Shown here: piece by piece, positions 19,620 through 46,972 of the stretch
How the letters are laid out: each line of letters opens with the position of its first letter
Position numbering within the stretch: position 1 is the first letter of the stretch
Assembly (NCBI RefSeq): GCF_024437735.1
Contig: NZ_JANFQO010000018.1
Span: 42,825 to 106,824, forward strand
DNA length: 64,000 bases
Reading direction: 5' to 3'
Origin: Tahibacter harae
GTDB taxonomy: Bacteria > Pseudomonadota > Gammaproteobacteria > Xanthomonadales > Rhodanobacteraceae
Translations under genes and position numbers: made by a program
Notes under the pieces: model-generated
The model's input: only the letters and a program-made list of their open reading frames with translations
What the model was told of the DNA's origin: nothing
Databases searched by the model: none

Positions 19620-20267
19620 ATGAAAGCCCTGACCTGCCTGCTCGCCGTGCTGGGCGCCAGCGCCTGCACCGCCGCCATCGCGGCCTCCAACACCGCCTAC
19701 CGCTGCACCGATGCCAGCGGCGCGATCGCGTTCCAGGACAAGCCCTGCCGCAGCGGCCAGCAGAGCCAGTCCTTCGAATACCAGCGCGATCCGCCGCCCG
19801 CGCCGGCCGATCCCGCCGCCAGCCCGGACCCGGCAACCCTGACCGCCGAAGCCGAGCCCGAACCGCCCGCCTCCGTGCCCGCGCCGCCGCCGCCGCGGCC
19901 ACCCGTCCCGCCGGTGTTCAAGTGCGTGCGCGCCGACAACGACAAGGTCTACTACAGCGACACCGGCGAAACCCGGCCCTACCAGGTGCCCGCCGGCGTG
20001 CTGGGCGCGCCGGGCAGCTCGCTGGGTTCCAGCGCCGTGCCGTCGGCGCCGGAACTCAACCGTCCGGGCGTCGCCGCGCCCAGCATCGCCTCGGCCTATG
20101 TGGAAGTGCGCGACCGCTGCGAACAGCTCAGCCCCGCCGAAGCCTGCCGCGTACTGCGCGGCCAGCTGGACGAAAACCTGACCCGCCAGCGCAACGCCAG
20201 CCGGGAAGAGCGCGAAGGCCTCGCGCGCGAGGCCCATGCCCTGGCCGACAAGGTCGCCGGCTGCTGA
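19620..20267 (+). CDS. DUF4124 domain-containing exported protein
   Basis: A 215-residue protein with a signal peptide (cleavage near AIAA/SNTAY). A DUF4124 domain follows (YRCTDASGAIAFQDKPCRSGQQ), with the paired Cys and aromatic residues typical of this small beta domain. A Pro/Ala/Glu-rich linker (about 60-100) leads to a second Cys-containing segment (FKCVRADNDKVYYSDTGETRPY). The C-terminus is helical and charged, with CEQLSPAEACRVLRGQL. Function is unknown; DUF4124 proteins are common periplasmic proteins of Gammaproteobacteria. It is divergent from the aldolase by 55 bases. The repeat array starts eight bases after its stop codon. Confidence 0.82.
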   Translation: MKALTCLLAVLGASACTAAIAASNTAYRCTDASGAIAFQDKPCRSGQQSQSFEYQRDPPPAPADPAASPDPATLTAEAEPEPPASVPAPPPPRPPVPPVFKCVRADNDKVYYSDTGETRPYQVPAGVLGAPGSSLGSSAVPSAPELNRPGVAAPSIASAYVEVRDRCEQLSPAEACRVLRGQLDENLTRQRNASREEREGLAREAHALADKVAGC

Positions 20268-20274
20268 TGCGTTT

Positions 20275-20367
20275 TCGCCCAGACCGGGCGAGAGCCAGCA
20301 ACGGCGCGGCCTGCAGCGATTCATCCACAGGCTTTTCCGCGCGCTTGTCCACAGCGGCTGTGGACAA
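20275..20367 (+). repeat. Repeat unit 1 (most diverged)
   Basis: The 5' half is strongly diverged and lacks TTGCGCAA. The 3' half keeps CTGCAGCG, TCATCCACAGGC and an exact palindrome: TTGTCCACA (20345-20353), spacer, TGTGGACAA (20359-20367). Each of these boxes is one base from TTATCCACA. Confidence 0.65.
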
Positions 20368-20377
20368 CCCGCAGGGG

Positions 20378-20413
20378 ATTTTTACTCAAATAAACTTTGA
20401 GCAATTATCCACC
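20378..20413. other. AT-rich patch with a near-consensus DnaA box
   Basis: Between repeat units 1 and 2 the sequence ATTTTTACTCAAATAAAC, then TTTGAGCAATTATCC, is markedly AT-rich against a very GC-rich background. TTATCCACC at 20405-20413 matches TTATCCACA at eight of nine positions. AT-rich DNA beside clustered DnaA boxes resembles an unwinding element, but this is inference. Confidence 0.5.
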
Positions 20414-20438
20414 CAACACAGCGGAACCTGCTCAATCT

Positions 20439-20531
20439 TTGCGCAAAGCGGGCCGCACCCGCGCCAGCACTGGCACAGCGGCCACTGTGCACAGACTTGT
20501 CACCACGGTTGTCCACAGGTCCTGTGGATAG
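20439..20531 (+). repeat. Repeat unit 2 (diverged)
   Basis: Starts TTGCGCAAAGCG and ends TTGTCCACAGG TCCTGTGGATAG. The terminal boxes TTGTCCACA (20509-20517) and TGTGGATAG (20523-20531) are each one base from the DnaA consensus. The middle part is diverged from units 3-6. Confidence 0.7.
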
Positions 20532-20553
20532 CGCGCGCTGCACTGGCGAAGAA

Positions 20554-20646
20554 TTGCGCAAAGCGTGCGAAAGCGAGCTGCACCAACGCCTGCAGCGTTT
20601 CATCCACAGGCTTGTTCCGGGTAGTTTCCACAGCCGCTGTGGATTA
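20554..20646 (+). repeat. Repeat unit 3
   Basis: Starts TTGCGCAAAGCGTGCG, contains TCATCCACAGGCTTGTTCC and ends TTTCCACAGCCGCTGTGGATTA as two inverted boxes. A 213-base non-repeated spacer separates it from unit 4. Confidence 0.8.
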
Positions 20647-20859
20647 CGCGGCGCAGAGAAACCCACAGGGAAAAACCCTCAGGCGCCACGGGCCCGCGCA
20701 ACGCTGCGCGCAGGCGCGGAAGACGGCGAAAAACCGCTGCGGAACGCCTGTACGCCGTGCTGCACCGACGTGCGATCGGCAGCGAAGCTGCGCGCACACA
20801 CAAGACGGCGGCGCCGGCGAGGGCCGCAGGGACGCACGGCAGCAAGCGCTGGCGAAAGT

Positions 20860-20952
20860 TTGCGCAAAGCGTGCGAAAGCCAGCTGCACCAAGGCCTGCA
20901 GCAATCCATCCACAGGCTTGTTCCGGGTGGTTTCCACAGGCGCTGTGGATTA
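20860..20952 (+). repeat. Repeat unit 4
   Basis: Nearly identical to units 5 and 6. A full TTTGCGCAAA palindrome spans its 5' end (20859-20868). It ends with CTGTGGATTA at 20943-20952. The ~167-base spacer that follows is homologous to the one between units 5 and 6. Confidence 0.85.
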
Positions 20953-21119
20953 ACGGCGACACCGCGGCGTTCGATGCGCGCTCACGCTGATCGCGCCACC
21001 CTTGCTGCGGCGGCACGCCGATTGCCGTCACCGATCAGTGTCAGCGTCGCGCGCAGACGACGTCCGCCGATCACGCCGACAACGCCTCACCCAGCCCGCG
21101 AAAGCCCGCTGGCCAAAGA

Positions 21120-21212
21120 TTGCGCAAAGCGTGCGGAAGCCAGCTGCACCAAGGCCTGCAGCAATCCATCCACAGGCTTGTTCCGGGTGGTTTCCACAGG
21201 CGCTGTGGATTA
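21120..21212 (+). repeat. Repeat unit 5
   Basis: Begins 260 bases after unit 4. It differs from unit 4 by a single substitution in the part compared (GCGGAAGCC for GCGAAAGCC). Its terminal box TGTGGATTA is at 21204-21212. Confidence 0.85.
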
Positions 21213-21380
21213 ACGGTGACGCTGCCGCGCTCGATGCGCGCTCGCGCTGACCGGCATCGCCTTTGCTGCGTCCACCCGTCGACCACTGCCACCGATCCGT
21301 GTCAGCGTCGCGCGCAGGCAATGCCCGCCGGTCACGCCGACAACGCCTCACCCAGCCCGCGAAGGCCCGCTGGCCAAAGA

Positions 21381-21473
21381 TTGCGCAAAGCGTGCGGAAG
21401 CCAGCTGCACCAAAGCCTGCAGCAATCCATCCACAGGCTTGTTCCGTGTGGTTTCCACAGGCGCTGTGGATTA
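21381..21473 (+). repeat. Repeat unit 6
   Basis: Begins 261 bases after unit 5 and ends 58 bases before the ogt stop codon. It carries two small substitutions relative to unit 5 (CAAAGCC, TTCCGTGTGG). Its terminal box TGTGGATTA is at 21465-21473. Confidence 0.85.
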
Positions 21474-42220: not shown

Positions 42221-42769
42221 TCAGCGCTTCTTGGCGCCTTTCTTCGCTGCGGCTTTCCTGGCCGGAGCTTTCTTCGCAGCCGCCTTCCTGGCCGGGGCCT
42301 TCTTGGCCGGCGCCTTCTTCACGGCAGCTTTCTTCGCCGCGGCCTTCTTCACCGCCGCCTTCTTGGCCGGCGCTTTCTTGGCAACGGCCTTCTTGCCAGC
42401 GGCCTTCTTGGCCGGCGCCTTCTTCGCCGCGGCCTTCCTGGCGACCTTGGCCACCGCCTTCTTCACCGCCGTCTTGGCACCGGCGGCCTTCTTGGCGGCT
42501 TTCTTCGCCGCCGGCTTGGCCTTGGTCACCGCCTTCCTGGCCTTGGCCACGACGCTCTTGACCTTCTTCTGCGCCGCGTCCTTGACGTCCTTGGCCTTCT
42601 TCACCACGGCCTTGGCGCGCTTGGTCACGGCTTCCTTGGCATCGGTCGCGGCCGCGCTGACGGTGGCGACGGCGGCTTCGGTCTTCTCGGCCACGGCTTC
42701 GCTCACGTTCTGCGCGGTTTCCTTGACCGTCTCCAGCGCATTGCTCAGTGTCTCACCTACGGTGTGCAT
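42221..42769 (-). CDS. Histone H1-like Ala/Lys/Pro-rich DNA-binding protein
   Basis: A 182-residue protein of the bacterial H1-like (Hc1/AlgP-type) class. Residues 1-60 form an acidic/basic amphipathic helix ([20 protein letters not shown]). The rest is a tail of [17 protein letters not shown] pentad-type repeats, nearly free of other residues. Such tails bind DNA non-specifically and vary in repeat number between strains. It lies between the two halves of the split ribonucleotide reductase on the same strand, 77 bases after nrdJa. GAGGGTTC lies upstream of ATG 42769. Confidence 0.88.
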
Positions 42770-46932: not shown

Positions 46933-46972
46933 GTTCGGAATTCGGAATTCGGAATTCGGGATTCGGGATTCG
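46933..46972. repeat. GGAATTC/GGGATTC tandem repeat after degQ
   Basis: Three GGAATTC heptamers pass into two GGGATTC heptamers, starting eight bases past the degQ stop codon. It is the most regular copy of the dispersed repeat and shows its 7-base period. Confidence 0.75.

What the first reader, a model, noticed from the sequence alone, without database searches (positions are those of the whole stretch)
20275..21473. Six-copy 93-bp repeat array carrying paired DnaA-box-like sites: candidate DnaA-titration or origin-like locus
Seen: six 93-bp units, each ending in inverted 9-mers around a 3-5 base centre. The boxes (TTGTCCACA, CTATCCACA, TAATCCACA, GTTTCCACA) are one or two mismatches from TTATCCACA. 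An AT-rich patch with TTATCCACC lies at 20378-20413. The last three units, with spacer, are recent 260/261-bp tandem duplications, so copy number may still be changing. Known: E. coli datA and DARS are non-coding DnaA-box clusters that control initiation, and oriC pairs boxes with an AT-rich unwinding element. Inference: this locus binds DnaA. The canonical oriC neighbours (dnaA, dnaN, rpmH) are not here, so a titration site or secondary element is more likely than oriC.
Basis: partly seen in the sequence, partly recalled or inferred. Interest (0 to 1): 0.8.

Follow-up and report, generated by a model that had tools for sequence, protein, structure and literature searches.

The report
Tandem DARS-like DnaA-box array
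A bacterium that groups with the genus Tahibacter carries six side-by-side copies of a short non-coding element whose DnaA boxes are laid out much like the sites E. coli uses to recharge its replication starter DnaA, so the array likely helps to set when its chromosome begins to copy.

Summary
The array is real and far beyond chance. Six cores lie in a 1264-bp gap between two convergent genes. The inverted pair with its 5-bp gap is the box I/II pair of E. coli DARS1 and DARS2. A Fis-type consensus sits 82 bp upstream of the pair in cores 2-6. Related genera have the same layout: exact cores of this type occur in 120 of 299 sampled genomes of the order, all in two families. A single core with exactly the E. 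coli DARS spacing (third box at 12 bp) occurs in 250 of 299 genomes, and with priA in 28 of 32 loci examined; this genome has one too. The window array is best read as an amplified DARS variant with the strong third box moved one turn out. It likely binds DnaA with Fis, and most likely helps to regenerate ATP-DnaA while also storing DnaA. Binding and activity are untested, no IHF site was found, and a fis gene was not located. It is not oriC and not a scattered repeat. New variant of a known kind.

The parts
20321..20367 (+). Core 1: box A TCATCCACA 20321-20329, half box TTTTCC 20333-20338, box B TTGTCCACA 20345-20353, 5 bp, box C (minus strand TTGTCCACA) 20359-20367
   Evidence: no Fis-type match (<=1 mismatch) at -82
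20430..20531 (+). Core 2: Fis-type site GCTCAATCTTTGCGC 20430-20444 (exact), box A CTGTGCACA 20485-20493, box B TTGTCCACA 20509-20517, 5 bp, box C (minus strand CTATCCACA) 20523-20531
20545..20646 (+). Core 3: Fis-type site 20545-20559 (1 mismatch), box A TCATCCACA 20600-20608, box B GTTTCCACA 20624-20632, 5 bp, box C (minus strand TAATCCACA) 20638-20646
20851..20952 (+). Core 4: Fis-type site 20851-20865 (1 mismatch), box A CCATCCACA 20906-20914, box B 20930-20938, box C 20944-20952
21111..21212 (+). Core 5: Fis-type site GGCCAAAGATTGCGC 21111-21125 (exact), box A 21166-21174, box B 21190-21198, box C 21204-21212; tandem duplicate of core 4
21372..21473 (+). Core 6: Fis-type site 21372-21386 (exact), box A 21427-21435, box B 21451-21459, box C 21465-21473; tandem duplicate
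20377..20413 (.). AT-rich patch with lone box TTATCCACC (20405-20413), between cores 1 and 2; role unknown
19620..20267 (+). Left neighbour: DUF4124 protein gene, ends toward the array (exact start not settled)
   Evidence: PF13511
21532..22161 (-). Right neighbour: O6-methylguanine-DNA methyltransferase gene, ends toward the array
   Evidence: PF01035, PF02870

Best explanation
The stretch is a non-coding tandem array of six DnaA-box cores that share the inverted, 5-bp-gap box pair of the E. coli DARS sites, and it likely works as a DARS-like site at which DnaA is predicted to be recharged with ATP and also held in store. Shown by sequence: each core has box B and box C facing each other across 5 bp, a same-strand box A 24 bp upstream of box B with a half box (TTTTCC, TTGTCA or TTGTTC) between them, and in cores 2-6 a Fis-type consensus at a fixed -82. 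Inferred: DnaA molecules on boxes B and C would meet head to head as on DARS boxes I and II, molecules on box A and the half box would extend the oligomer, and Fis would act from upstream; this would loosen ADP and let apo-DnaA pick up ATP. Six cores would raise both the reactivation and the storage capacity, and the tandem duplications suggest that copy number changes. The place between two convergent gene ends speaks against a promoter role.
For: E. coli DARS1 and DARS2 cores read from MG1655: box I(+), 5 bp, box II(-), 3 bp, box III(-). All six window cores have the 5-bp inverted pair with a third box 24 bp from one arm, 5 or 6 of 6 hexamer letters. In 66 related loci, 161 of 163 palindromes have a further TCCACA-like hexamer (>=5/6) at 11/12 or 23/24 bp; 3.0% expected at random places; only 1 of 163 has it on both sides. 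Bases outside the search pattern match the DnaA box: TT at -3/-2 in 47% of 330 half sites against 2.6% of 117 control hexamers; box A reads T.60 T.87 A.62 before TCCACA in 112 cores. Gap not chosen beforehand: 43 of the 75 listed inverted TCCACA pairs with gap 0-14 have gap 5. Fis consensus (<=1 mismatch) at -82 or -81 in 86 of 134 23/24-type cores (24 exact) and in 21 of 21 isolated 12-type cores (16 exact); 52 of 65 loci against 5.2% at other offsets. Exact DARS spacing (12-type, <=1 mismatch) in 250 of 299 genomes of the order, reversed control 0, in this genome at G000:C23:330744, with priA in the same ~3-kb locus in 28 of 32. The genome's DnaA keeps R399, R407, Q408, D433-T436 and D269, R281, R285, L290 of E. 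coli (D269 and L290 are named for DARS1 and DARS2 in PMC5742627 passages; the other roles are recalled).
Against: No binding or nucleotide-exchange data. In the window cores the strong third box is at 24 bp, not 12 as in E. coli DARS; only a half box stands at 12. No IHF consensus (<=1 mismatch) between cores in 7 Tahibacter-genus loci; in 159 related cores no place has one in more than 16, and the two commonest places fall on box A of the same or the next core; E. coli DARS2 needs IHF. The Fis-type site is at -82 here, whereas the only exact consensus at DARS2 is at about -140 in the same frame; 48 of 134 23/24-type cores and window core 1 lack it. A fis gene was not found in the window plus 400 kb of this genome; a Fis homologue is reported for Xanthomonas campestris (PMC8578834 passages). 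Window boxes differ from TTATCCACA at 1-3 places. DnaA differs from E. coli at E21 (D), F46 (Y) and H136 (Y). Spacing between cores is not a simple helical multiple over the wider sample (R=0.11). The gene neighbourhood differs from both E. coli DARS sites.
Confidence: 0.55

Rival explanations
1. Passive DnaA store or datA-like sink: the array holds or inactivates DnaA and delays initiation, without recharging it.
For: 18 box-like sites in 1.2 kb and tandem duplication; DnaA-box clusters of this use are described in B. subtilis and Streptomyces (PMC5742627 passages). In a one-contig congener the array lies about 0.9 Mb from dnaA, 28% of half the chromosome.
Against: A store needs no strict geometry, yet the 5-bp inverted pair, the one-sided third box and, less strictly, the Fis-type site are kept while spacers drift. 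The E. coli datA stretch has no 5-bp inverted pair and datA uses IHF, for which no site was found here.
Confidence: 0.27
2. Operator array: the palindromes are read by another dimeric regulator, not DnaA, and control nearby genes.
For: Perfect palindromes suit a dimeric regulator; isolated 12-type cores lie near priA.
Against: The window array sits between convergent gene ends; gene neighbours differ between lineages in the representatives scanned; half sites extend to the DnaA box; the pair geometry equals that of the E. coli DARS cores.
Confidence: 0.1
3. Origin-like element: the AT-rich patch and boxes form a second or cryptic replication origin.
For: The AT-rich patch is the most AT-rich 30-mer of the window, and AT-rich stretches lie before the matching core in the other Tahibacter-genus loci, clear in four of six.
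Against: dnaA, dnaN, rpmH are not among the neighbours; dnaA-dnaN with two consensus boxes lies on contig C17. The patch is not general: in 8 of 56 other loci the stretch upstream of the first core ranks in the top 5% of its locus.
Confidence: 0.04
4. Selfish or structural repeat (REP-like element) or small-RNA array without a DnaA role.
For: Tandem duplications.
Against: No scattered copies of the unit at E<=0.001; the only Rfam match was mir-139 at E 0.93, far below its cut-off; conserved box geometry across genera.
Confidence: 0.04

Closest known systems
E. coli DARS1 and DARS2 (DnaA-reactivating sequences)
   Same: Inverted DnaA-box pair with a 5-bp gap, further box on one side, non-coding; Fis site in the locus as at DARS2 (PMC8682772 and PMC4245941 passages)
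   Different: Strong third box at 24 bp with only a half box at 12; six tandem cores; no IHF site found; Fis-type site closer; other gene neighbours
12-type single core near priA in the order (found here; also in this genome at contig C23)
   Same: Same inverted pair and nearly the same Fis-type position (-81)
   Different: Third box at 12 bp exactly as in E. coli DARS; one per genome in most rows; not an array
E. coli datA
   Same: Non-coding DnaA-box cluster outside oriC
   Different: The datA stretch read here has an inverted pair with a 3-bp gap but none with 5 bp; datA works with IHF (PMC5742627 passages)
DnaA-box clusters of Bacillus subtilis and Streptomyces
   Same: Clusters of DnaA boxes away from oriC (named in PMC5742627 passages)
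   Different: Layout not compared here; the original papers were not read (PMC3245932 is not held)

Membership tests
DARS | Boxes I and II in opposing orientation with a 5-bp gap | tested here: met
   6 of 6 window cores; same gap in E. coli DARS1 and DARS2
DARS | Box III 3 bp beyond box II (12 bp start to start) | tested here: not met
   In the window the third box is at 24 bp in 6 of 6 cores; a half box lies at 12. The C23 core of the same genome does meet it
DARS | Fis site near the core (DARS2) | tested here: met
   By consensus only: at -82 in 5 of 6 window cores, in 86 of 134 related cores; binding not tested, position differs from DARS2
DARS | IHF sites near the core (DARS2) | tested here: not met
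   None with <=1 mismatch between cores of 7 loci; no common place off the boxes in 159 related cores
DARS | Promotes ADP release from DnaA | not testable with these tools
   Needs purified protein
DARS | Same gene neighbourhood as E. coli DARS1 or DARS2 | tested here: not met
   DUF4124 and methyltransferase here; bioD-uvrB and rppH-mutH in E. coli
datA | DnaA-box cluster with an IHF site | tested here: not met
   Cluster present, IHF consensus not found
oriC | dnaA, dnaN or rpmH neighbours | tested here: not met
   Neighbours scanned; dnaA-dnaN on contig C17
REP-like repeat | Many scattered copies | tested here: not met
   Of 40 matches of the 120-bp unit, the 5 at E<=0.001 lie in this array; the other 35 are short pieces (14-34 bp) at E 0.03-7.6

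The most novel reading that the evidence does not exclude
Two families of Lysobacterales run a two-tier DnaA recharge system: one fixed DARS beside priA and one amplifiable DARS array with a 24-bp box register and built-in Fis site, whose copy number evolves fast and tunes initiation; DARS control is thus order-wide and not limited to relatives of E. coli.
Probability: 0.35. Interest if true: 0.85.

Novelty: new variant of a known kind. Interest (0 to 1): 0.68.

Why it matters
How bacteria outside the enterics reset DnaA is an open question; the passages seen describe the DARS2 core as conserved in species related to E. coli (PMC4245941, PMC8682772, PMC5742627). A sequence signature that finds a DARS-type core in 250 of 299 genomes of another order, plus a tandem variant with differing copy number (1 to 10 palindromes in the loci held), makes that question directly testable. 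No paper on DARS in this group came up in searches for Xanthomonas+DARS2 (one unrelated paper), Xanthomonas+DnaA box+oriC, Stenotrophomonas+DnaA boxes, Lysobacter+DnaA box or DnaA-reactivating sequence+conserved+genomes; these cover open-licence full text only and were judged from listings.

Tried and rejected
Considered and rejected: oriC (another contig holds dnaA-dnaN), REP-like repeat (no scattered copies), RNA element (one Rfam match, mir-139 at E 0.93, below its cut-off), promoter operator (convergent gene ends). Helical phasing of cores: in the first sample spacings of 100-130 bp fell at 113-117 (52) and 124-129 (20) and none at 118-123, but that sample was picked in this range; 70 spacings from the list gave no 10.5-bp period over all (R=0.11), so the claim was dropped. 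IHF site: none found. Fis gene in this genome: not found in window plus 400 kb, the rest not looked at. The search for relatives of E. coli Fis showed the best 120 of 1154, close relatives of E. coli Fis, and did not settle it. AT-rich patch as a general feature: not seen outside the Tahibacter-genus loci as a rule.

Rows dropped or not seen: one search found 119 stretches, 80 shown with titles; I used 66 of these 80, dropping 14 (other phyla, one betaproteobacterial bin, oriC-type clusters), and left out the 39 without titles; two kept loci (L123, L132) bear titles of other groups but share gene clusters with kept Lysobacterales loci. Searches list only part of their matches; tallies rest on all genomes searched, counts of places on the listed rows. 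The gap test used 75 of about 160 forward matches, from 16 of 31 genomes, array members among them; the reversed control pattern gave 61. One congener, G006 (680 contigs), showed no match. The half box, the AT-rich patch in relatives and the two-family limit were read by eye from the outputs.

Full report
Place. The window is contig C10:42825-106824 of a 5.99-Mb genome in 79 contigs. A congener by the tool's kinship (G004) has a contig of the same length, 739,434 bases, as a record of Tahibacter aquaticus DSM 21667 with the same gene order at the array, so the genome is taken as Tahibacter kin; that is an inference.

Observation. Six palindromes TCCACA-N5-TGTGGA lie at 20348-21470, in a 1264-bp gap between the ends of two convergent genes, DUF4124 (plus) and O6-methylguanine-DNA methyltransferase (minus). 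The gap holds 6 palindromes and 17 TCCACA hexamers; 1000 dinucleotide shuffles gave no palindrome and a mean of 0.41 hexamers. Units 3-6 are 83-96% alike over 115 bp; units 1 and 2 are diverged. The last three units are 260/261-bp tandem duplications. Of 40 matches of the 120-bp unit in the genome, the 5 at E<=0.001 lie in this array and the rest are short pieces. Outside the array one further exact palindrome exists in the genome, at C23:330756, and two with one mismatch.

Layout of a core. Each window core has box A, 24 bp on box B in the same strand, then a 5-bp gap and box C on the other strand. Between A and B stands a half box in register (12 bp), read by eye. The E. coli cores, read from MG1655, are box I(+), 5 bp, box II(-), 3 bp, box III(-), both at DARS1 (bioD-uvrB) and DARS2 (rppH-mutH). 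The window cores thus share the inverted pair and the one-sided extension, but the strong third box is 24 bp out instead of 12. The E. coli datA stretch shows an inverted pair with a 3-bp gap and none with 5 bp.

Is it DnaA? The search patterns used only TCCACA. In 66 related loci the two bases at -3/-2 are TT in 47% of 330 half sites against 2.6% of 117 TCCACA hexamers more than 1 kb away, and box A reads T.60 T.87 A.62 before TCCACA in 112 cores: the DnaA box. Without choosing the gap, 43 of the 75 listed inverted TCCACA pairs with gaps 0-14 have gap 5; the list covers 16 of 31 genomes and includes array members, and the reversed pattern gave 61 matches against about 160. The genome's DnaA is identical to that of E. 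coli at 262 of 452 aligned positions and keeps R399, R407, Q408, D433, H434, T435, T436 and D269, R281, R285, L290; E21, F46 and H136 differ. PMC5742627 passages name L290 for DARS2 and D269 for DARS1; the roles of the other residues are recalled.

Third box. Of 163 palindromes in the 66 loci, 161 have a TCCACA-like hexamer (at least 5 of 6) at 11/12 or 23/24 bp; random places give 3.0%; 1 of 163 has it on both sides. Offsets were 23 (108), 24 (34) and 12 (21); 95 of 96 neighbouring cores point the same way. Two types result. The 12-type has exactly the E. coli DARS spacing; with up to one mismatch it is in 250 of 299 genomes of the order and 75 of 85 genera, with no hit of the reversed control, and priA lies in the same ~3-kb locus in 28 of 32 12-type loci. 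This genome has one, TGTTCCACA-3-TTATCCACA-5-TTATCCACA(minus), at C23 before priA. The 23/24-type is exact in 120 of 299 genomes of the order, all in two of its families (f1 and f2, by my reading of the rows), and in 5 of 369 genomes of the class, all five from the order. Some arrays mix both spacings; in G004 the first core also fits the 12-type with one mismatch.

Fis-type site. The Fis consensus GNNYANNNNNTRNNC (from PMC8682772, passages) lies, with up to one mismatch, at -82 or -81 from the pair in 86 of 134 23/24-type cores (24 exact) and in 21 of 21 isolated 12-type cores (16 exact); the mean at a position is about 2 of 134. 52 of 65 loci have it against 5.2% at other offsets, with an A/T-rich centre. 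In the window, cores 2-6 have it (exact in 2, 5, 6), core 1 does not. E. coli DARS2 needs Fis and IHF (PMC4245941 passages); an IHF consensus was not found here. Xanthomonas campestris has a Fis homologue (PMC8578834 passages); in this genome fis was looked for only in the window and 400 kb and not found.

Relatives. The array, with 2 to 5 palindromes, lies beside the DUF4124 gene in 6 of 7 congeners; the methyltransferase gene is its other neighbour in 5 of these 6; G006, a draft in 680 contigs, had none. Elsewhere, in the representatives scanned, paired cores lie beside other genes: miaB- and phoH-type genes in a Xanthomonas locus, whose gene clusters recur in further Xanthomonas and Stenotrophomonas loci; miaA- and Band-7-type genes in Lysobacter loci; accD-, trpA- and PAP2-type genes in Rhodanobacter and Dyella loci; a LuxR-type response regulator or a Nudix gene in Pseudoxanthomonas. 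Similar cores at different addresses, with drifting spacers, argue for function in the cores rather than in the neighbours. In the one-contig congener G005 the array is about 0.9 Mb from dnaA, 28% of half the chromosome.

Reading. The most likely mechanism is a DARS-like site: head-to-head DnaA on boxes B and C, extended by DnaA on box A, with Fis upstream, releasing ADP and yielding ATP-DnaA; PMC8682772 passages give this mechanism for DARS boxes I and II. All steps after the sequence match are inferred. A passive store or datA-like sink is the main rival. Because the third-box spacing is not met, the array is not filed as a DARS member but as a variant that works like one; the C23 core does meet the spacing.

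Limits. Match lists were cut in several calls, MAG titles can be wrong, related loci are not independent, and the pattern searches miss diverged boxes. The literature was searched in open-licence texts only, and papers were seen as listings or passages, none as a whole.

Noticed in passing
window 20377-20413: The most AT-rich 30-mer of the 64-kb window lies between cores 1 and 2 with a lone TTATCCACC. AT-rich stretches lie at a like place before the matching core in the other six Tahibacter-genus loci, clear in L044-L047 (97% AT in L045), weak in L048 and L049 (57-63%), judged by eye. Role unknown.
   Followed up: partly
G000:C23:330741-330775 (L212): A core with exact E. coli DARS spacing and two perfect TTATCCACA boxes stands before priA in this genome; the same pairing with priA recurs in 28 of 32 12-type loci.
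   Followed up: yes
L107 and G153:C1:4725977-4726618: Larger arrays in relatives: 10 palindromes in Lysobacter antibioticus HS124; six identical palindromes at 113-128-bp steps in an unnamed same-family genome, which look freshly amplified.
   Followed up: no
L121, L136, L148, L099: Loci titled Ktedonobacter, Dictyobacter and Thermosporothrix with 8-13 TCCACA-N5-TGTGGA palindromes and 50-65 TCCACA hexamers in 8 kb; perhaps their origins; a third box (>=5/6) in 0 of 30 palindromes of the first three and 2 of 9 in L099.
   Followed up: no
window 42235-42442: 45-bp repeats with a 15-bp subunit, 4.6 copies; probably the coding repeat of a basic Lys/Ala-rich tail, not checked.
   Followed up: no
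window 46934-46972: Short 7-bp tandem repeat TTCGGAA, 5.6 copies, 96% matches.
   Followed up: no
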